A stretch of 41,312 nucleotides of DNA, taken from the IMG/VR virus record IMGVR_UViG_3300030382_003620, positions 1 through 41,312 of that record; one strand, 5' to 3'. Of this stretch, positions 10,885 to 31,917 are shown piece after piece; positions within the stretch are counted from its first letter, which is position 1, and each line of letters begins with the position of its first letter. Position numbers and translations under genes: made by a program. Origin of the DNA: a virus. Under the pieces are notes generated by a model, which was given only the letters and a program-made list of their open reading frames with translations, did not search any database and was not told where the DNA came from.

Positions 10885-13800
10885 TTATCTCATCCCTCTC
10901 ACACGACCAACAGTGGGCCTGATCTGTCCCTGTCTCGGTCCACCCGGTGATACAGATCCAATCATTTGTCGTAACATACCGGGATCAACTCCTCCAACGC
11001 CCTGTGCAAGAGCAAATAATCCTTCTAGTGCTTCTGGTCCGATCTGCTGTGCATAGCTACGTGTGGGAATCATGGATGTTATTTGACCCTGCTGGTTCAA
11101 AACTGGTCGTAATGATGGAGCAATATATCCGCTATCTTGATAAGCGAGCATCGACGCGGTTGCCGGATCAAGAGCAGAAAGTCCTGCTTGTAACATCTGT
11201 GGTGCGATGCCAATCTCGGCAATGTCAACATCTCCCTCTTGCCTCTGTTCCAGAGTCCGTCTCTCTTCTGTTCCACCAGCAGCAATATTAGCAAGATCCT
11301 GCCTTCCTTCAGCAACAATTTGGTCGATCTTACCTTTTAATTCAATGAGTGACAGATGCCTCTGATGATTAAATGATTCTCCCTGTCTTTGCTTATCCTG
11401 TTCTCCAGACTGAATAAGCAGGTCGAGATCACCCTGTATCTCAAGAGCTTTTGTTTGCCGACTCTCTACTCCAGAAGCAGCAATATTGGCACGATCCACG
11501 TCTCCTTCAGCAGAAATCTGGTCAAGAATCTGTCCACCAGCTTGAGCCTGTGTGCGTCTCGTTTCTTCTCCACCAGCAGCAATATTAGCAAGGTCCTGAG
11601 CACCTCTTTCGCGCTCTAGTGCAAGATCTCGCGTTCCAGATGCGATTCCCTCAGCCTTTTCCGCTGCTATCTCTCGATTCAGGACATCTAGCTTCGTCTT
11701 TCGATCTTCTCCCTTTGACAGGCCAATTTCTTCAAGGGTGTTATCATGCCGGAGAGAAATGATATCTTTATCTGCATTAGATCTTGCAGTAATTTCCTTC
11801 ATCATATTCTCGAAATTTTTTGCTGTCTTCTCCATATCATTCGTGTGAATCACACCAATCTCGTGCAGAGTAGTAGCAAATTTTACGGATATGTTTCTTC
11901 TCTCTTCGTTCCCCTGTGCAGCAAATTGTTTGAGTACCGCCGTGTGTTCTGATGCCTGCATACTTTCATCATGAGACATTTCCATACCAAGAATTAATTT
12001 CTGAAAAGACCTTTCGTTTTCTGATTCCCCAGAACGAAAGATGAACTCGGAGTCCTGCATAGAAGCATGAAACTCTTGGGCTTGCGCGTCTGTCATACGC
12101 TGTTCTTCGCCACCCTTTGCAATTGCCTCAAGTTGTGTCTCTTTGACTGCAAGGAGTTCTTCTAGTTTGTTTTCATGTTCTTCAACTCGTGCCGAGTCAG
12201 CAATTTCGGAAGCGCGATTCATTGAATTTTTTTCTGCTTCAATCTGCCTGTCCAGCATGTCGATAGCTTCGTTATGTCTGATCCCAGCTTGAGTATCTTG
12301 CCAAGTAAGGAGAGCATCCTGTGTGAGCCTGTCCTCTACTCCTTCTTGTTCTATACGCGCAAGACCCCCATAGATCTCCATGGTTGTTTCCATCATGTCC
12401 CATGACGCCTTCTGGTTAACGGTCAATCGATCTTCTATACCAGACTGCTTAATCATGTCCATATTATTCTTTGTTGTTACATTAAATTGCCGGACAGCTT
12501 CCGCATCGTTATCGTCGAGTCTCGTCTGTTCTTGAGACTCACGCCACGTGATGAGAGCATTTTGATAGTGTGTCTCGTACTCCGTAATAATGGGATTCGG
12601 CATCTGTTGTGTTGTTATTTTCGTTTCATACGTCATGTGTTCTTCTGGGTTTCCATCTGCATCCGTTTTGAAATGTTGTATCCCGTACTTTGAGATTTCC
12701 TCTAGTTGGACTAGACGTCCCTCCACATATTCATCATTCCCAAGCGCGTCTTTTCTTGTATGAGTATTAAGCCAATATTTTCCTGTCCCTACGGCTACCG
12801 TAACTTCTGATCCGGCTGGTAACATAGTGGGAACAGGGTTTCCTGCGCTATCCATCAAAACAATTTTCTTAGGTTTTTCATTCCGATTGATACTGTCCGT
12901 GAGAGAGAGATGTGCCGCACCAAGAATGGTATTCATCGCATCATCGTATTGCTGACGTTTTAGTGATCCGGCTACCGGAATAGACCCATCCGCTTCCAGA
13001 AAGTCATTGAGGTTAATCTGGTATTGAGGAACTCCTGATGTGAATCCATCCAGCTTGGGGATATTCTTCCTCGTAAAGTCTTTCATCTTATCCGACATGT
13101 TCGTACCAACAGCGTCTATTTGGCTGTTGACTTTTTCTCGTCGATTCCCTTGCTGGCGTTCTAACTGATGCCACGCTTCTGATCCCGGTGGATTCGGATT
13201 GAAGAACTTAAGCGCTTCTTGCCCTTGCCCTTCTTCACTCGTCTCTTGTTTTTGTGATCCATCGGAAAATATTGTTTTGCTTGATCCATCGAGAAATACT
13301 GTTTTGATTAATCCATTTGTTTGCGTCGTTGTGGTCGATCCATCAGCGTTCTGTACGCTAGTCGATCCATCAGCGTTCTGTACGACATTTGTTCCAGCCG
13401 CTATATTATTCTGTGCCATTGTAGTGACTTGATTCGCAAAATTCTTGAATGCAGAAAGTGCTGATCCATCTCCTGCTGTTCCCGGCTTTGTCGTATCCGT
13501 TACGTTTACTTGTGGAGATATCGTACCGACGGCTGGGATAGTATTGACGAGGTTTCCTAAGCCGTCATAAATTTCTTTTGATCCGTCTGCATGGTGAACT
13601 GTCTTTGCTCCAGACGCATCATATGTGTTGAATGATGTCCCTCCCGCAGAATCGCTAGTTGTGGGTACTACGGGTTTGGGTACTACGGGTTTGGGTACTA
13701 CGGGTTTGGGTACTACGGGTTGTCCATTTTGCACAACGGGTTTTCCGTTTTGCACAACAACATCTGGTTTTCCGTTTTGCACAACAACATCTGGTTTTCC

Positions 13801-14250
13801 GTTTTGCACAACAACATCTGGCTTTACGTTTGGTTGACCGTTGTTCACAACAACTGGCTGTCCGTTTATTGTTTCATCCGATGGTTGTATATAATCACCC
13901 TCAAAAAAGTCACCCTCGAATCCAAGGTTATTAAAGCTACCCTTTGAGCCAAAGTTTGGCCCAATTTGATTCTTGGGAGATTGAAATCCATATGCTTTTG
14001 TAAGACTAGTTAATACTTGATCTCCCCGTGTATCAACGTCCATATTTGTATTCATTGCGGGAGTAATAAATCCCCCCGCTGCTTCATCAAGCGGAAGAGA
14101 TCTGTCTTCCGCTCCCGGCGTAAGAGGCTGATAAAACCGAGAAGTGGGATCCCCTTTCCCCCCTTCTTCCTCTGCTTCAAATTCGTCCCACTCGCCTTGG
14201 GCCCCCCAAGGGTACTTATCCTCTGATCGATATCCCGGTACGTTTGGCAT
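10885..14250 (-). CDS. Large repeat-rich virion protein, 1121 aa
   Basis: Three zones are visible. An N-terminal zone (1-150) is disordered. A repeat zone (about 140-200) carries VVVQNGKPD (three perfect copies) and VPKPV (four copies), followed by NADGST-type repeats to about 340. A long helical zone (about 560-1040) carries a recurrent pattern DLANIAAGGEETRRT, in which blocks of about 25-35 residues recur many times, typical of an extended alpha-helical rod. The C terminus is basic (QIRPTVGRVRGMR). It is probably an elongated internal or tail virion protein working with the 1756-aa protein. The helical zone could act as a tape-measure-like ruler. No domain with known activity is visible. 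Confidence 0.6.
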   Translation of the reverse strand: MPNVPGYRSEDKYPWGAQGEWDEFEAEEEGGKGDPTSRFYQPLTPGAEDRSLPLDEAAGGFITPAMNTNMDVDTRGDQVLTSLTKAYGFQSPKNQIGPNFGSKGSFNNLGFEGDFFEGDYIQPSDETINGQPVVVNNGQPNVKPDVVVQNGKPDVVVQNGKPDVVVQNGKPVVQNGQPVVPKPVVPKPVVPKPVVPTTSDSAGGTSFNTYDASGAKTVHHADGSKEIYDGLGNLVNTIPAVGTISPQVNVTDTTKPGTAGDGSALSAFKNFANQVTTMAQNNIAAGTNVVQNADGSTSVQNADGSTTTTQTNGLIKTVFLDGSSKTIFSDGSQKQETSEEGQGQEALKFFNPNPPGSEAWHQLERQQGNRREKVNSQIDAVGTNMSDKMKDFTRKNIPKLDGFTSGVPQYQINLNDFLEADGSIPVAGSLKRQQYDDAMNTILGAAHLSLTDSINRNEKPKKIVLMDSAGNPVPTMLPAGSEVTVAVGTGKYWLNTHTRKDALGNDEYVEGRLVQLEEISKYGIQHFKTDADGNPEEHMTYETKITTQQMPNPIITEYETHYQNALITWRESQEQTRLDDNDAEAVRQFNVTTKNNMDMIKQSGIEDRLTVNQKASWDMMETTMEIYGGLARIEQEGVEDRLTQDALLTWQDTQAGIRHNEAIDMLDRQIEAEKNSMNRASEIADSARVEEHENKLEELLAVKETQLEAIAKGGEEQRMTDAQAQEFHASMQDSEFIFRSGESENERSFQKLILGMEMSHDESMQASEHTAVLKQFAAQGNEERRNISVKFATTLHEIGVIHTNDMEKTAKNFENMMKEITARSNADKDIISLRHDNTLEEIGLSKGEDRKTKLDVLNREIAAEKAEGIASGTRDLALERERGAQDLANIAAGGEETRRTQAQAGGQILDQISAEGDVDRANIAASGVESRQTKALEIQGDLDLLIQSGEQDKQRQGESFNHQRHLSLIELKGKIDQIVAEGRQDLANIAAGGTEERRTLEQRQEGDVDIAEIGIAPQMLQAGLSALDPATASMLAYQDSGYIAPSLRPVLNQQGQITSMIPTRSYAQQIGPEALEGLFALAQGVGGVDPGMLRQMIGSVSPGGPRQGQIRPTVGRVRGMR
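13663..13722. repeat. Four 15-bp tandem repeats in the 1121-aa gene
   Basis: Four consecutive 15-bp units (13663, 13678, 13693, 13708; the last differs at one base) encode a VPKPV-type pentapeptide on the minus strand. Copy number could vary by slippage without breaking the frame. Confidence 0.9.
13741..13821. repeat. Three perfect 27-bp tandem repeats in the 1121-aa gene
   Basis: Three identical 27-bp units (13741, 13768, 13795) encode the nonapeptide VVVQNGKPD (circularly permuted). Degenerate copies flank them on both sides. Exact identity over 81 bases implies recent expansion. Confidence 0.9.
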
Positions 14251-18680: not shown

Positions 18681-19733
18681 CTACGATGGTGGTGAGATGG
18701 ATACTTCCACGTTATCGACGTTACTGAACGTCTTATAGGTGGTTGTTCCTGTAATCTCAAAATCCTTGGCAGCAAAGCCGTCTCCATTTCCAACCTCTAG
18801 ATATGTTATGTCAAGTATGCCCGCCTTTATCCTGCTGAGAACACAGGGTCCGCCTTTTGTATAGAGGTTACTGAGATAGAGGACATCGACCTTTCCATTA
18901 ACCCCGGAATTTGGGGCGGTAATTTTAATCTGGTCGTAGAGTCCTCCTTTGGTTTCCATCTTATCTGCGCGGTTTCCCCCACCAATGCCTCGTGCGCGTG
19001 GTGTTCCCGGTATGGGAGCGATGCTCTGTCCGTCTGAGGCGTTGTACTTGACGTTGAGCGTATGTGCCTCGACGTTACTGACGGAGAATTTCGTACACCG
19101 CCAGCGGTCGACGATGAGATGTCCGACTTCGAGATAGGTTTCGGCGAAGACGGGATCGCTGGTTGCAGGAAGACCCCCAATGACGATGACATTTGTCTCT
19201 CCACTGGGAAGGGCTGACCCCGTGTAGGCGGTTCCGACGGTCACATCACTGATGGAAATTTCTCCCACGGGGACAGAACCGAGGTCGATCCTGAGCGTGT
19301 TGTCCTGATCGGACCACTCGATGGGCGTATCGGACGGAGCAGTGTAGATGCCCGCATCGCCCGCGGAAAAGCTCTTTCCTTCCAGCACTTCATTGACAAC
19401 AACACTGGATGTCACGGCTGTACTGGCGAAAAGCATCGTTCCTGCCATCTGTGGACTGAATCCCATCGCACGTAAGACGCTGTAGGGACTCTTCAGGATT
19501 TGGAAGATCCGTCGCCACTTCTCGGATTCTTCCTGTAAATAGGCAACCTTTGCAAGGAGCCAGTCACGGAATCGGACACTCTTCAAATAGATGTTTCGGG
19601 GTGTCCCCCAGATCACATGACCAAGAAAAACAAGGAAGCGAAACGGTGCAAGAAGCGCCAAACACAGAAAACGGATTCCCCAGACAAGCTCAGTGGTCCC
19701 ACCGATCCCGATCCGCAGACCCCGTTGCCACAT
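18681..19733 (-). CDS. Membrane-anchored beta-rich protein, 350 aa
   Basis: Residues about 1-45 hold one or two hydrophobic segments (WGIRFLCLALLAPFRFLVFL). Another hydrophobic helix lies near 95-115 (MAGTMLFASTAVTSSVVVNE). From about 120 on the protein is beta-rich and soluble (VPVGEISISDVTVGTAY, then TNVIVIGGLP). No family is recognised. The layout resembles a membrane-tethered or membrane-penetrating virion or lysis-associated protein. It follows the 52-aa membrane protein by three bases with only a weak ribosome site, so the two are probably coupled. Confidence 0.6.
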   Translation of the reverse strand: MWQRGLRIGIGGTTELVWGIRFLCLALLAPFRFLVFLGHVIWGTPRNIYLKSVRFRDWLLAKVAYLQEESEKWRRIFQILKSPYSVLRAMGFSPQMAGTMLFASTAVTSSVVVNEVLEGKSFSAGDAGIYTAPSDTPIEWSDQDNTLRIDLGSVPVGEISISDVTVGTAYTGSALPSGETNVIVIGGLPATSDPVFAETYLEVGHLIVDRWRCTKFSVSNVEAHTLNVKYNASDGQSIAPIPGTPRARGIGGGNRADKMETKGGLYDQIKITAPNSGVNGKVDVLYLSNLYTKGGPCVLSRIKAGILDITYLEVGNGDGFAAKDFEITGTTTYKTFSNVDNVEVSISPPS

Positions 19734-19736
19734 ACG

Positions 19737-19895
19737 TTACTCGCTTTCCAAGACCTTCATTCCCAGAGCAATGATCCCACTACTCGCCCCGGCTGCAATC
19801 TCAACGGCTTCATTCATGATGCCAATCACGCTGAGCCCACCCAGCACAATAATCGCAATAAAGATCTGAGGTCGAATCTTTGATATCCAGTTCAT
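19737..19895 (-). CDS. Small membrane protein, holin candidate (52 aa)
   Basis: ATG 19895 follows GAGAGGTGG. The product has one clear membrane helix (IFIAIIVLGGLSVIGIM, residues about 11-27), an Ala/Gly-rich second half (EIAAGASSGIIALGMKVL) and a charged end. It is the first gene of the minus-strand operon. Small proteins with one or two membrane helices in phage late operons are often holins or spanin partners, but no endolysin is recognisable nearby, so the lysis role is only a suggestion. Confidence 0.6.
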   Translation of the reverse strand: MNWISKIRPQIFIAIIVLGGLSVIGIMNEAVEIAAGASSGIIALGMKVLESE

Positions 19896-27993: not shown

Positions 27994-28044
27994 ATGGAAC
28001 TCTTGATCGCCATCGCTATCGTCGGAATAGTCAGTAGTTTATAA
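27994..28044 (+). CDS. Possible 16-aa hydrophobic micropeptide
   Basis: ATG 27994 lies one base after the stop of the previous gene and reads MELLIAIAIVGIVSSL before TAA. The whole peptide is a short hydrophobic helix. AGGTAGGT lies a few bases upstream. It is too short for confidence. A toxin-like or membrane-active leader is one option, a chance frame another. Confidence 0.35.
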   Translation: MELLIAIAIVGIVSSL

Positions 28045-28066
28045 AGTGTGACGCGTGTCACACTTT
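28043..28066. promoter_or_regulatory. CACGTG-type palindrome 8, before the Tas gene
   Basis: A 24-base copy with one changed central base (ACGCGT in place of ACACGT, core TGTGACGCGTGTCACA). It ends 4 bases before the AAGGAG of the Tas gene and is the only copy linked to that locus. The single change leaves an RNA stem intact through a G-U pair. Confidence 0.75.
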
Positions 28067-28082
28067 CATAAGGAGATGTTTC

Positions 28083-29171
28083 ATGGAAGAAAATTTTATC
28101 GTCACAACAATTTGTACAACCTGTGGGGGGCACCTTCAGTGTCCCACATGCCAGCCGGATTTCCAGCGTCCACTCGACGCACAGATTCGCGAGGCTGCCA
28201 CAACCATGCACCCGAAGGAAGCACGGCTTCTCGTCAAGGATTACTACATCATGCAGTCGAACCGTGTCCGGGCAGACAACCAGATCAGAAGCTCAAAGGC
28301 ACTGGATGAGCCAACGTCTATACTCGAATGGTCATCCCATAACTTTCGAGAACTGGAGAACCAAGTCCGCAAGGTCTTGGACAGTTACAGTAGCTCATCC
28401 AAGATCGGTGAGTGGGCAAAGAGTAACACCGGGATCGGTCCCGTCATCGCATCGGGGTTACTGGCACACATAGATCTCGACAAAGCACGGACACCGGGTG
28501 CGATCTTCCGCTTCGCCGGACTCGACCCCAGTATGCAGTGGCTCGGCAAGGACGGGACACGAGATATCGTAACGGATGTCTTGGGAACACAGCGTGACCC
28601 GGACGACGACGATCTGGATCTCATTGCGGATCGCCTGAACAGGTCACCATCCAACCTGCGTGAACTGATCCGAGCCCACATGGAAGAGGAAGCCGAGCGC
28701 AACAACAGGAAGACGGTGAGTGATGAGATCACACGCGATGATGTCATCAAGGCTGCATCACGCAGGCCATTCAACGCCAACCTGAAGAGGTTGTGCTGGA
28801 TCATGGGCGAGAGCTTCATCAAGGTATCGGGGAATGACAAAGCATTCTACGGTCAGAAGTATGCAGAGAGAAAGCTCTGGGAGATCGAGAACAATGAGGC
28901 TGGGGGCAACGAAAAGCTGGCTGGTGATAAGATTGCCAGTGGAAAATTCAAGAAAGCAACGAAGGCGAAGTCCGCCTATGAGAAGGGGAGACTGCCGGAT
29001 GCGGAGATCACGAGCCGTTCACGACGGTGGGCAGTCAAGATGTTCTTGTCCCACTACTGGGAGGTGGGGTATCGTATCGCCAACGAGGGACAGCAGCCAC
29101 CCCGACCGTGGGTGATCGAGCATGGGGGACACACCAAGTACATTGCCCCACCAAACCTCGACATGATTTAA
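28083..29171 (+). CDS. Tas-like RNA-guided DNA-binding protein (TasA class), 362 aa
   Basis: ATG 28083 is 7 bases after AAGGAG. Residues 11-23 form a zinc knuckle (CTTCGGHLQCPTC). Residues about 45-105 are a coiled coil (RLLVKDYYIMQSNRVRADNQ, SHNFRELENQVRKVLDSY). Residues 107-149 carry the helix-hairpin-helix signature shared by IS110-family transposase C-terminal domains and Nop proteins: TGIGPVIASGLLAHIDLDKA, then FRFAGLDP. The C-terminal part (SRSRRWAVKMFLSHYWEVGY, then PPRPWVIEHGGH) is also typical of phage IS110-like proteins. No IS110 DEDD domain, no HNH and no RuvC motif is visible, so it fits nuclease-free TasA. The guide array starts 5 bases after its stop. An ordinary IS110 transposase is excluded by the missing catalytic domain. 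Activity is inferred. Confidence 0.82.
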   Translation: MEENFIVTTICTTCGGHLQCPTCQPDFQRPLDAQIREAATTMHPKEARLLVKDYYIMQSNRVRADNQIRSSKALDEPTSILEWSSHNFRELENQVRKVLDSYSSSSKIGEWAKSNTGIGPVIASGLLAHIDLDKARTPGAIFRFAGLDPSMQWLGKDGTRDIVTDVLGTQRDPDDDDLDLIADRLNRSPSNLRELIRAHMEEEAERNNRKTVSDEITRDDVIKAASRRPFNANLKRLCWIMGESFIKVSGNDKAFYGQKYAERKLWEIENNEAGGNEKLAGDKIASGKFKKATKAKSAYEKGRLPDAEITSRSRRWAVKMFLSHYWEVGYRIANEGQQPPRPWVIEHGGHTKYIAPPNLDMI

Positions 29172-29176
29172 CAACC

Positions 29177-30446
29177 GAGAGATCCATTCGATAAGAGGTA
29201 ACAAAGCAGACGAGAGATCCATCAGGGAAGAGGTAACACGTGAGTAGAGAGATCCAGATATATAGAGGTAACAAATGATTGGAGAGATCCAAAAACTCAG
29301 AGGTAACAACAGCCATGAGAGATCCACGATACACGAGGTAACAGGATATCGGAGAGATCCAAAATTGCTGAGGTAACAGAGCCGATGAGAGATCCACAAC
29401 CTTTGAGGTAACACGGAAGTGGAGAGATCCAACTTACAAGAGGTAACAGACACGAGGAGAGATCCATCCCAGCAGAGGTAACAATGCCGAAGAGAGATCC
29501 ACGATATCAGAGGTAACAGAGCCTGCGAGAGATCCATTCAAGAAGAGGTAACAGTTCCGGTGAGAGATCCAAAGGCAGAGAGGTAACAGAAGATAGGAGA
29601 GATCCATTAGGAGAAGAGGTAACAGGAAGCGGGAGAGATCCAACGAAAGCGAGGTAACAGGAACGGTGAGAGATCCAGACTGTGCGAGGTAACATGTTAG
29701 GTGAGAGATCCAAGTGTTGTGAGGTAACACAGAAGTTGAGAGATCCATCGCTGTTAAGGTAACAATCAGGGCGAGAGATCCATATATGACGAGGTAACAG
29801 GAAACCAGAGAGATCCATGATTTGTGAGGGAACATAGGTGATGAGAGATCCAGATTGAGAGAGGTAACAGGGACGGTGAGAGATCCAATGGCCCCGCGGT
29901 AACAAATCAGAGGAGAGATCCAATATACACGAGGTAACAAGTCGGATGAGAGATCCACAAGTGAAGAGGTAACACGGGGTTTGAGAGATCCATCAGTGAA
30001 GAGGTAACACGTGACTAGAGAGATCCACTGGATAGAGAGGTAACAGAGCCGATGAGAGATCCAAGGTGAAAGAGGTAACAGAAGATATGAGAGATCCAAG
30101 CGGAACGAGGTAACACGTGAGGAGAGAGATCCGCAGTTGATGAGGTAACAAGTTGGGTGAGAGATCCAGTTGGAGAGAGGTAACACAAGGGTAGAGAGAT
30201 CCACTGGCGAAGAGGTAACAGATAAAGGGAGAGATCCAACCTCGAAGAGGTAACAATAAGTACGAGAGATCCACCCCAGCAGAGGTAACAATCACGGTGA
30301 GAGATCCACATATGACGAGGTAACAGGACGTTTGAGAGATCCACGGCGAAAGAGGTGACATGCAAGGTGAGAGATCCAATGGTGACGAGGTAACAATCAC
30401 GGTGAGAGATCCATGAGACTTGAGGTAACAAGGGACCAGAGAGATA
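29177..30446 (+). repeat. TIGR-like tandem interspaced guide array, 36 dual-spacer units
   Basis: Unit: GAGAGATCCA, 8-nt spacer A, GAGGTAACA, 8-nt spacer B; period 35 (units 13 and 25 are 36, with 9-nt A spacers). It ends in a degenerate GAGAGATA at 30439. Spacers A/B in order: ttcgataa/aagcagac, tcagggaa/cgtgagta, gatatata/aatgattg, aaaactca/acagccat, cgatacac/ggatatcg, aaattgct/gagccgat, caaccttt/cggaagtg, acttacaa/gacacgag, tcccagca/atgccgaa, cgatatca/gagcctgc, ttcaagaa/gttccggt, aaggcaga/gaagatag, ttaggagaa/ggaagcgg, acgaaagc/ggaacggt, gactgtgc/tgttaggt, agtgttgt/cagaagtt, tcgctgtt/atcagggc, tatatgac/ggaaacca, tgatttgt/taggtgat, gattgaga/gggacggt, atggcccc/aatcagag, atatacac/agtcggat, caagtgaa/cggggttt, tcagtgaa/cgtgacta, ctggataga/gagccgat, aggtgaaa/gaagatat, agcggaac/cgtgagga, cagttgat/agttgggt, gttggaga/caagggta, ctggcgaa/gataaagg, acctcgaa/ataagtac, ccccagca/atcacggt, catatgac/ggacgttt, cggcgaaa/tgcaaggt, atggtgac/atcacggt, tgagactt/agggacca. 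Repeat variants: units 17, 19, 21, 34 (second repeat) and 28 (first). Confidence 0.95.
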
Positions 30447-30500: not shown

Positions 30501-30932
30501 GTGCCAACCACAACACAACAGACAATGTGGAAGCAAAGATATCGAGAAAAAAAGAAGTCACTTGGACTGTGTATCTATGGGGGATGCAACAGATTACCCG
30601 TTGGTAATCTCGTCCATTGTTCAGAGCATAGAAAGTCCCGCGAAAGATTGTGTAGGTATAACCACTGTGCTAAAATAGTGGCCCCGCGGAAGATATACTG
30701 CACTAAACACAGGGTCATAGCAGCACGGGAAACCATGCGAAATAAGGAAAGGAAGTTAAAGAAAAGGAGACGCGAATACCAACTCGCAAATGGCCTTTGT
30801 GGGAGGCCATACTGCACGCGAGTTTCGCTGAGTGGAAAAACGCTTTGCGAATACCACAGGGAGAAGTCGAGAGAAGCAAATAAAAAAGCACGTCTAAAAC
30901 ACAGGAGGTTAGCAGATGGCAGCGCAGAATAA
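30501..30932 (+). CDS. Cys/His-rich basic protein after the array, 143 aa
   Basis: GTG 30501 follows AGGAG at about 12 bases; an ATG at 30525 is the alternative. Three similar metal-binding blocks are visible: LCIYGGCNRLPVGNLVHCSE with HR, LCRYNHCAKIVAPRKIYCTK with HR, and LCGRPYCTRVSLSGKTLCEY with HR. Each has the spacing C-x3/4-C-x8/10-C-x2-H. Between them lies a very basic helix (ERKLKKRRREYQL). Repeated small zinc knuckles plus strong basicity imply DNA or RNA binding. It is the first gene after the array and overlaps the Bet gene by 17 bases, so a role with either the guide system or recombination is possible. Confidence 0.65.
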   Translation: MPTTTQQTMWKQRYREKKKSLGLCIYGGCNRLPVGNLVHCSEHRKSRERLCRYNHCAKIVAPRKIYCTKHRVIAARETMRNKERKLKKRRREYQLANGLCGRPYCTRVSLSGKTLCEYHREKSREANKKARLKHRRLADGSAE

Positions 30933-31917
30933 TGAGAAGGATATCGTTCCAATGGATCAGGGGGACCTCAACTGGGGTTCCATTAAGAAATTCCTCACAG
31001 CAAACATGACGCATCCGCCCACCGATGACGAGGTTCGGATGTTCCTTGCAATCTGTCAGCAGAGTGGGCTCAATCCTTTTACCCAAGAGGTCTACGGGAT
31101 TAAGTATTCTGCGAAGGATAAGATGCAGATCATCACGAGCAAGGACGCATTCGTGAAACGGGCGCGGGCGCACCCACAATTCAAAGGACTGGAAGCAGGG
31201 ATCATTGTTATCCGAGAAGGGAAGGTCGAGGAACTGGTTGGATCTTTCATGCTGGGGAACGACAAGCTCGTGGGTGGATGGGCACGGGCACACCTCAAAG
31301 ATATGTCCGTTCCATTCGAGGACAAGGTGGCACTGGACGAGTACGACAAGGGACGCGGGACATGGAATACACTCCAGAAAACCATGATCCGAAAAGTTGC
31401 TATCGTACACGTCTTACGCGAAGCATTTCCCGAAGTTTTTAGTAAGGTCTATGACGAGTCCGAGATGGATCAGGCGCACCCCAACAGGGACCTAATCAAG
31501 GACATACAAAAGAAGCAAGAGGTTGGGGAAGCCACGATTGTCGAGACGGAATCCGTGACAAAGGAACCACCTGCTCCACTAAATCCTGTCTTACCTGAAA
31601 CGGAAGTCACCATACCCGAAACGGAAGTCATCGAGACTGCAACTGAACTCCCCCAGACTGTCGAGAAGGAGGAGGAAATATTCCCAGATGATGAAGGGGC
31701 TTCCAATGGTGACGAAATAGCAGGTGGGAAGATCCTGATGGCTGAAGGTGGGCTTACTCTTAACTTTGGAAAGCACAAAGGTAAGCTCCTCTACAACGTT
31801 GCTCGTAACACGGAAGACAAGGAGTACCTCAAATGGATACTCGAACAGGACTTCGATGATGACCTCAAGAGCATCATTAGAGACGAGCTAAATATGGCAG
31901 AAGCTGAGTCTGCATAA
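30916..31917 (+). CDS. Bet/RecT-type single-strand annealing protein with ExoX-like C-terminal domain
   Basis: ATG 30916 follows AGGAGG. The N-terminal domain (about 20-185) has FLAICQQSGLNPFTQEVYGI, then MQIITSKDAFVKRARAHPQF, the conserved core of Red-beta/RecT annealing proteins. A disordered acidic Pro/Glu linker follows (about 200-275). The last 50 residues (LNFGKHKGKLLYNVARNTED, YLKWILEQDFDDDL) match the small GKHKGK domain found at the C terminus of exodeoxyribonuclease X-like proteins. It would coat and anneal single strands during replication-linked recombination. No partner exonuclease is visible in the window apart from the nuclease-like gene at 34890. Confidence 0.85.
   Translation: MAAQNNEKDIVPMDQGDLNWGSIKKFLTANMTHPPTDDEVRMFLAICQQSGLNPFTQEVYGIKYSAKDKMQIITSKDAFVKRARAHPQFKGLEAGIIVIREGKVEELVGSFMLGNDKLVGGWARAHLKDMSVPFEDKVALDEYDKGRGTWNTLQKTMIRKVAIVHVLREAFPEVFSKVYDESEMDQAHPNRDLIKDIQKKQEVGEATIVETESVTKEPPAPLNPVLPETEVTIPETEVIETATELPQTVEKEEEIFPDDEGASNGDEIAGGKILMAEGGLTLNFGKHKGKLLYNVARNTEDKEYLKWILEQDFDDDLKSIIRDELNMAEAESA

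What the first reader, a model, noticed from the sequence alone, without database searches (positions are those of the whole stretch)
28083..30446. A TIGR-Tas-like RNA-guided system in a phage early operon
A protein with a zinc knuckle, coiled coil and IS110/Nop-like core (TGIGPVIASGLL, FRFAGLDP) is followed after 5 bases by 36 dual-spacer units of 35-36 bp. Two different repeats alternate with two short variable spacers. TIGR-Tas systems are defined by this pairing: a Nop-domain Tas protein and an array processed to guides of about 36 nt with two spacers. No nuclease domain is visible, so this is TasA-like, the class whose biological role is least clear. Placement between accessory genes and the recombination module suggests use in phage-phage or phage-host conflict, or in gene regulation.
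Basis: partly seen in the sequence, partly recalled or inferred. Interest (0 to 1): 0.97.

Follow-up and report, generated by a model that had tools for sequence, protein, structure and literature searches.

The report
TIGR-TasA guide-RNA system in a phage
This phage carries a TIGR-TasA system, a recently described kind of RNA-guided DNA-binding machine that lacks a cutting domain, and a second phage with an almost identical protein has almost completely replaced and reshuffled its guides, a clue to how these arrays evolve; what the guides aim at is still unknown.

Summary
In detail: a 362-aa ORF (28083-29171, +) is followed 5 bp later by 36 dual-spacer units (29177-30438) and a truncated closing repeat. 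The protein is a genuine Tas protein. With a 65-sequence profile its best solved relatives by sequence are TasR (E 2e-27) and TasH (9e-18), ahead of IS110 (1e-5). A confident AlphaFold model (pLDDT 91) has TasH and TasR as its ten best PDB fold matches. No nuclease domain is present, so it is TasA type. Array design follows published TIGR rules: alternating edge (GAGAGATCCA) and loop (GAGGTAACA) repeats and a truncated closing edge. Of 133 relatives in IMG/VR, 78 loci were examined; 67 have an array within 3 kb, against 0 of 32 related contigs without tasA. New here: a diverged relative has a 98% identical tasA but only one shared guide, and half-units are mixed independently. No targets above chance were found in the phage itself, 0.65 Mb of relatives or 1.6 Mb of tas-phage DNA. 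Some homologous guide pairs read like synonymous codon variants, but this is only suggestive (p about 0.05, stricter null). Verdict: new member of a known kind; biological role open.

The parts
28083..29171 (+). tasA: solo Nop-type Tas protein, 362 aa
   Evidence: Sequence profile hits TasR/TasH before IS110; AF2 pLDDT 90.7 with ten best PDB fold matches TasH/TasR; Pfam Transposase_20 just under cut-off; PHROG 4285 E 2.7e-34
28113..28151 (+). N-terminal CxxC-x5-CxxC (residues 11-23), putative zinc ribbon, low confidence in the model
   Evidence: Translation; present only in this protein and the L002 sister among 65 relatives; pLDDT 44-60 for residues 1-30
28425..28529 (+). IS110/Nop-like signature region TGIGPVIASGLL...FRFAGLDP (residues about 115-149)
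   Evidence: Pfam PF02371 match 114-153; nearly invariant G117 I118 G119 P120 V121 and invariant G146 in 65 relatives
28554..28748 (+). Helical insertion, residues about 158-222, present in 17 of 65 TasA relatives and absent from the rest
   Evidence: Alignments A4, A5 and occupancy count
29177..30438 (+). TIGR array of 36 units: edge GAGAGATCCA, 8-nt spacer A, loop GAGGTAACA, 8-nt spacer B
   Evidence: Unit parse and column information
30439..30445 (+). 3'-truncated closing edge repeat GAGAGAT, which sets the edge/loop phase
   Evidence: Sequence; same rule at the ends of many related arrays
30124..30158 (+). Unit 28 (CAGTTGAT / AGTTGGGT), the only unit kept whole in the sister array L002
28043..28066 (+). 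Inverted repeat AAAGTGTGAC-GCGT-GTCACACTTT just upstream of the tasA ribosome-binding site; absent in L002
   Evidence: Sequence; possible operator or RNA hairpin, untested
30916..31917 (+). RecT-like single-strand annealing protein downstream (context)
   Evidence: PHROG 2760 E 1.1e-54

Best explanation
This is a TIGR-TasA locus of a tailed phage. Shown here: the gene encodes a nuclease-free Tas protein and the adjacent array has the TIGR dual-repeat layout. Inferred from the TasR/TasH work of Faure et al. 2025 (PMC12045711): tasA and the array are co-transcribed, the transcript is cut within edge repeats to guides of about 35 nt, a TasA dimer holds one guide by its edge and loop repeats, and the two 8-nt spacers pair with opposite strands of a 16-bp double-stranded DNA site (top strand = spacer A + reverse complement of spacer B). 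The RNP should bind and bend the site without cutting it. Most likely role (inferred, about 50%): silencing or handicapping competing mobile elements, with the guide set diversified quickly by recombination between units and half-units.
For: Profile and fold identity with TasR/TasH. Array layout matches the published rules, including the truncated closing edge (PMC12045711). Linkage: 67 of 78 tasA loci have an array within 3 kb, 0 of 32 tas-less related contigs do. Five of six units tested fold no better than shuffles, as expected for dual-repeat rather than stem-loop arrays. Fast turnover: sister tasA 97.9% identical in DNA (16 synonymous, 6 nonsynonymous codon changes) but 1 of 36 units shared whole, 4 sharing only spacer A and 2 only spacer B with the other half clearly different. 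No self-matches above chance.
Against: No target was found in the phage itself, 0.65 Mb of related phages or 1.6 Mb of tas-phage DNA beyond shuffled-pair controls, so conflict with these particular elements is not supported. No promoter- or terminator-like site was seen around the array on the + strand. Expression, processing and DNA binding are untested.
Confidence: 0.86

Rival explanations
1. Same TIGR-TasA machine, but used as a programmable regulator or DNA-bending aid for the phage's own or the host's genes rather than against competitors.
For: TasA has no nuclease; the locus sits next to a recombination module (RecT, AAA ATPase, RusA); Faure et al. raise repression and integration aid as options (PMC12045711).
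Against: No enrichment of guide matches in the phage's own genome. Near-total replacement of guides between two phages with the same tasA is unlike stable regulation of fixed genes.
Confidence: 0.25
2. An IS110-family transposase relative beside an unrelated tandem repeat.
For: Pfam's closest model is Transposase_20 and PHROG 4285 is labelled 'transposase'.
Against: No DEDD/RuvC domain in the sequence or model; profile and fold scores favour TasR/TasH over IS621 and ISCro4 by many orders; the array recurs beside most relatives.
Confidence: 0.02
3. The guides act on RNA, as in box C/D snoRNPs, rather than on DNA.
For: Nop proteins of snoRNPs are relatives (PMC12045711).
Against: TasR had no activity on RNA and both strands of DNA are read by the two spacers (PMC12045711); no methyltransferase partner is seen among the neighbours scanned.
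Confidence: 0.05
4. The repeat block is a decaying or protein-coding satellite with no guide function.
For: Long minus-strand frames are open through the array.
Against: A 35-nt period shifts the frame every unit; repeats are almost invariant while spacers are nearly random, which implies selection on both repeats; the same in diverged loci.
Confidence: 0.01

Closest known systems
TIGR-TasA systems (FpTIGR and others), Faure et al. 2025, PMC12045711
   Same: Nuclease-free Nop protein with adjacent dual-repeat array of edge, spacer A, loop, spacer B; truncated edge at the array end; phage location
   Different: 36 units (usual 5-15), 8-nt spacers and mostly 35-nt units (typical 9-nt spacers and 36-nt guides), GA...CA rather than UG...CCA repeat ends as in TasR arrays, CxxC-CxxC N-terminus and a 65-residue insertion; no rho-independent terminator seen
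TIGR-TasH (Salicola phage CGphi29) and TaTasR (PDB 21kl/9vzx, 9mty)
   Same: Nop core: best sequence-profile and fold matches; TasH also has 8-nt spacers (16 nt per guide in PMC12045711)
   Different: No HNH or RuvC domain here; only 28% identity to TasH
IS110/IS1111 RNA-guided transposases (IS621, ISCro4)
   Same: RNA-binding core related to the Nop domain
   Different: No DEDD/RuvC catalytic domain, no bridge RNA, an array instead of a mobile element; much weaker match
CRISPR arrays without adaptation genes (e.g. phage mini-arrays, type IV)
   Same: Array of short variable guides next to an effector
   Different: Two alternating 9-10-nt repeats and split 8+8-nt spacers; unrelated effector (comparison from general knowledge)

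Membership tests
TIGR-Tas | Nop-domain effector related to Tas proteins | tested here: met
   TasR E 1.7e-27, TasH 9.3e-18 vs IS621 1.3e-5 with profile A5; ten best fold matches TasH/TasR
TIGR-Tas | Dual-repeat array: edge, spacer A, loop, spacer B, with 8-12-nt repeats and about 9-nt spacers | tested here: met
   Edge 10 nt, loop 9 nt, spacers 8 nt, 36 units
TIGR-Tas | Array adjacent to the tas gene, conserved across relatives | tested here: met
   67 of 78 loci within 3 kb; 0 of 32 tas-less contigs
[quoted passage not shown]
   Truncated edge GAGAGAT present at 30439-30445; no + strand terminator-like site found
TIGR-Tas | Edge and loop repeats share the same terminal (box D / box C) motifs | tested here: met
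   Both begin GAG and end CA; the two-repeat design recurs in 61 parsed loci, though the parser required an A at position 2 and CA at the end
TIGR-Tas | Processing to about 36-nt tigRNAs | not testable with these tools
   Needs small-RNA sequencing
TIGR-Tas | Tandem-spacer recognition of both strands of dsDNA | tested here: inconclusive
   No natural targets found; codon-coherence hint fits spA + rc(spB), gap 0, but only p about 0.05 under the stricter null
TasA subclass | No RuvC or HNH nuclease domain | tested here: met
   Pfam finds only Transposase_20; AF2 model has no extra N-terminal nuclease domain
IS110 transposase | DEDD RuvC-like catalytic domain | tested here: not met
   Absent from sequence and model
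CRISPR-Cas | One repeat type of 25-36 nt and cas genes | tested here: not met
   Two alternating 9-10-nt repeats; no cas-like gene among the neighbours scanned

The most novel reading that the evidence does not exclude
TIGR arrays in phages adapt by recombining half-units (one spacer with its repeat) and accumulate several guides that follow synonymous variants of the same protein-coding site, so that one array covers diverging copies of a conserved gene. The half-unit mixing is directly seen. The coding-target reading rests on examples such as YML[A/T]N in L095/L098 and NRVA in L102, with p about 0.007 under a simple null but only 0.045 under a stricter null that keeps substitution types, and it is not robust across distance cut-offs or geometries.
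Probability: 0.22. Interest if true: 0.88.

Novelty: new member of a known kind. Interest (0 to 1): 0.52.

Why it matters
The natural targets, the origin of the spacers and the role of nuclease-free TasA are stated open questions of the TIGR field (PMC12045711). This locus and its sister L002 form a natural comparison: nearly the same protein and the same repeats with an almost wholly different, reshuffled guide set, carried by phages whose other genes have diverged far more. That argues for fast change of the guides and gives a concrete pair of arrays, plus about 800 parsed units from related loci, for finding targets and testing how arrays change.

Tried and rejected
Self-targeting: no excess of spA + rc(spB) matches in the window or in L002. 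Targets in 34 contigs related through the protein at 18681-19733: none above shuffled pairing. Targets among all tas-phage loci: 3 exact 16-nt gap-0 hits (2 independent) against 0-1 at other gaps, no excess at 1-2 mismatches. Peptide-level search for synonymous homologues of targets: null; an apparent cluster of L095 guides on an L061 ORF was one guide hitting a repetitive protein. Two whole-collection 16-mer scans gave 33 and 16 hits; about half of the 33 hits for unit 28 lie in one giant phage protein family (KPAPQLIPNF), but the other scan clusters in a family too, the hits fall in several frames, and other guides of the array do not match the same contigs above chance, so this is treated as coincidence. 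Codon-coherence: promising at first, weakened by a stricter null. First AlphaFold run with two sequences was useless (pLDDT 42). The first genome-contig scan found nothing; the second found one Gemmatimonadetes MAG contig. No close relative in INPHARED phages.

Full report
1. What is in the sequence. The window is an IMG/VR virus record of 41,312 bp. A 362-codon ORF (28083-29171, +) ends 5 bp before an array that runs from 29177 to 30438. It holds 36 units, 34 of 35 nt and 2 of 36 nt, each made of GAGAGATCCA, 8 variable nt, GAGGTAACA and 8 variable nt. The two repeats are close to invariant (1.8-2.0 bits per column) while most spacer columns carry under 0.4 bits, with mild biases at two columns (0.54 and 0.57 bits). 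The array closes with a truncated GAGAGAT.

2. The protein. A single-sequence search of the PDB gave TasR (9mty, E 2.3e-14), TasH (21kl, 1.9e-6) and then IS621 (0.67). I built an alignment of 65 proteins from loci found here. Its profile gave TasR 1.7e-27, TasH 9.3e-18, IS621 1.3e-5 and ISCro4 1.8e-4. The AlphaFold model from that alignment has mean pLDDT 90.7 and pTM 0.87; its ten best PDB matches are all TasH or TasR chains, with IS110-type recombinases next at E 0.06 or worse. TM-scores are modest (0.41-0.48 by query length), as can be expected for distant relatives in other conformational states (inference). There is no RuvC or HNH domain. The protein is therefore a Tas protein of the TasA type. 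Residues about 158-222 are an insertion shared by 17 of 65 relatives, and the CxxC-CxxC N-terminus occurs only in this protein and its sister.

3. Gene and array travel together. A first profile (this protein, its sister and a 46% identical relative in L013) found 133 relatives in viral contigs, of which 80 loci were kept, and one in a Gemmatimonadetes MAG. Of 78 distinct loci, 67 have a dual-repeat array within 3 kb; at least one of the 11 without is cut by a contig end. None of 32 contigs that share another gene of this phage but lack tasA has an array. Across loci most edge repeats resemble GAGCGAGCCA and loop repeats vary around GAGAGNNCCA; many arrays begin and end with truncated edges, which fixes the unit phase. 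The parser required an A at position 2 and a CA end, so those two features are partly built in.

4. How the array changes. L002 is a contig from another phage: RecT is 32% identical, RusA 47%, and the protein encoded at 18681-19733 67%. Yet its tasA is 97.9% identical in DNA over 1,071 bp, with 16 synonymous and 6 nonsynonymous codon changes. Homology starts at about codon 7 and continues into the array, so the cassette was probably exchanged recently. Its array has 40 units. Only one unit is shared whole (W28 = L28). Four further units share spacer A while spacer B differs at 3 or more positions, two share spacer B with a different spacer A, and the shared pieces are out of order. W17 and L16 also share a rare loop variant (AAGGTAACA) with their common spacer A. 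By chance about 0.02 identical 8-mers are expected between two sets of 36 and 40. L002 also contains a duplicated stretch that spans spacer B of one unit and most of the next unit. Other related array pairs show the same mix of whole-unit sharing and half-sharing. I infer recombination with breakpoints in the short repeats; the enzyme is unknown, and the RecT gene 1.7 kb downstream of tasA is only a candidate.

5. Targets. From the published 8-nt 3' overhang and cleavage rule I derived the target as spacer A followed by the reverse complement of spacer B (PMC12045711). No enrichment over shuffled A/B pairing was found in the phage itself, in L002 or in 0.65 Mb of relatives, and no enrichment over other gap lengths in 1.6 Mb around all tas loci. 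Two whole-collection scans with single 16-mers did not give contigs with several guides.

6. A hint about target type. Some homologous units, read through the A/B junction, differ as codons would: L095/L098 give TAC ATG CTG ACC AAC, TAT ATG TTG GCC AAC, TAC ATG TTG GCG AAT and TAC ATG CTT GCC AAC (YML[T/A]N); L102 gives NRVA twice with three silent changes; the window and L002 give AELLT with two silent changes. A permutation test with random changes gave p 0.007 for 18 pairs at distance 2-3. A stricter null that keeps the substitution types gave p 0.045, weakening to 0.077 with distance up to 4 and not clearly separated from other geometries. I report it as a lead only.

7. Mechanism and role. 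By analogy with TasR and TasH, a TasA dimer should hold one guide of about 35 nt and bind a 16-bp site, one spacer per strand, bending the DNA without cutting it. Shown: protein family, array layout, linkage and turnover. Inferred: transcription, processing, DNA binding. Most likely use: blocking competing elements; regulation of own or host genes is the main rival.

8. Verdict. New member of a known kind (TIGR-TasA), with an unusually long array, 8-nt spacers and a sister array that makes array evolution visible.

Noticed in passing
window 28043-28066: Inverted repeat AAAGTGTGAC-GCGT-GTCACACTTT directly upstream of the tasA ribosome-binding site, not present in the sister phage L002; possible operator or RNA hairpin.
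   Followed up: partly
window 19746-19895 (minus strand): A short membrane-protein ORF (MNWISKIRPQIFIAIIVLGGLSVIG...) is 89% identical in DNA to L002 and L009 while the neighbouring gene is about 64% identical.
   Followed up: partly
window 13255-13831: Several perfect or near-perfect short tandem repeats (15 bp x 4, 27 bp x 3.4) inside the 1121-aa minus-strand ORF 10885-14250.
   Followed up: no
alignment A5: Three of 65 TasA-like relatives carry a Pfam HNH_3 match, so nuclease-bearing members may occur within this branch.
   Followed up: no
L125-L157: A giant phage protein family (ORFs up to 4300 aa, motif KPAPQLIPNF[DE]YKI) contains the 16-mer formed by unit 28 in about half of the 33 hit contigs; judged coincidental but worth a check with same-sample contigs.
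   Followed up: partly
L124 3183-4232: A TasA relative with an array lies on a contig of a Gemmatimonadetes MAG (JAHFCS010000011.1), the only hit in the genome collection; its targets in that genome were not searched.
   Followed up: no
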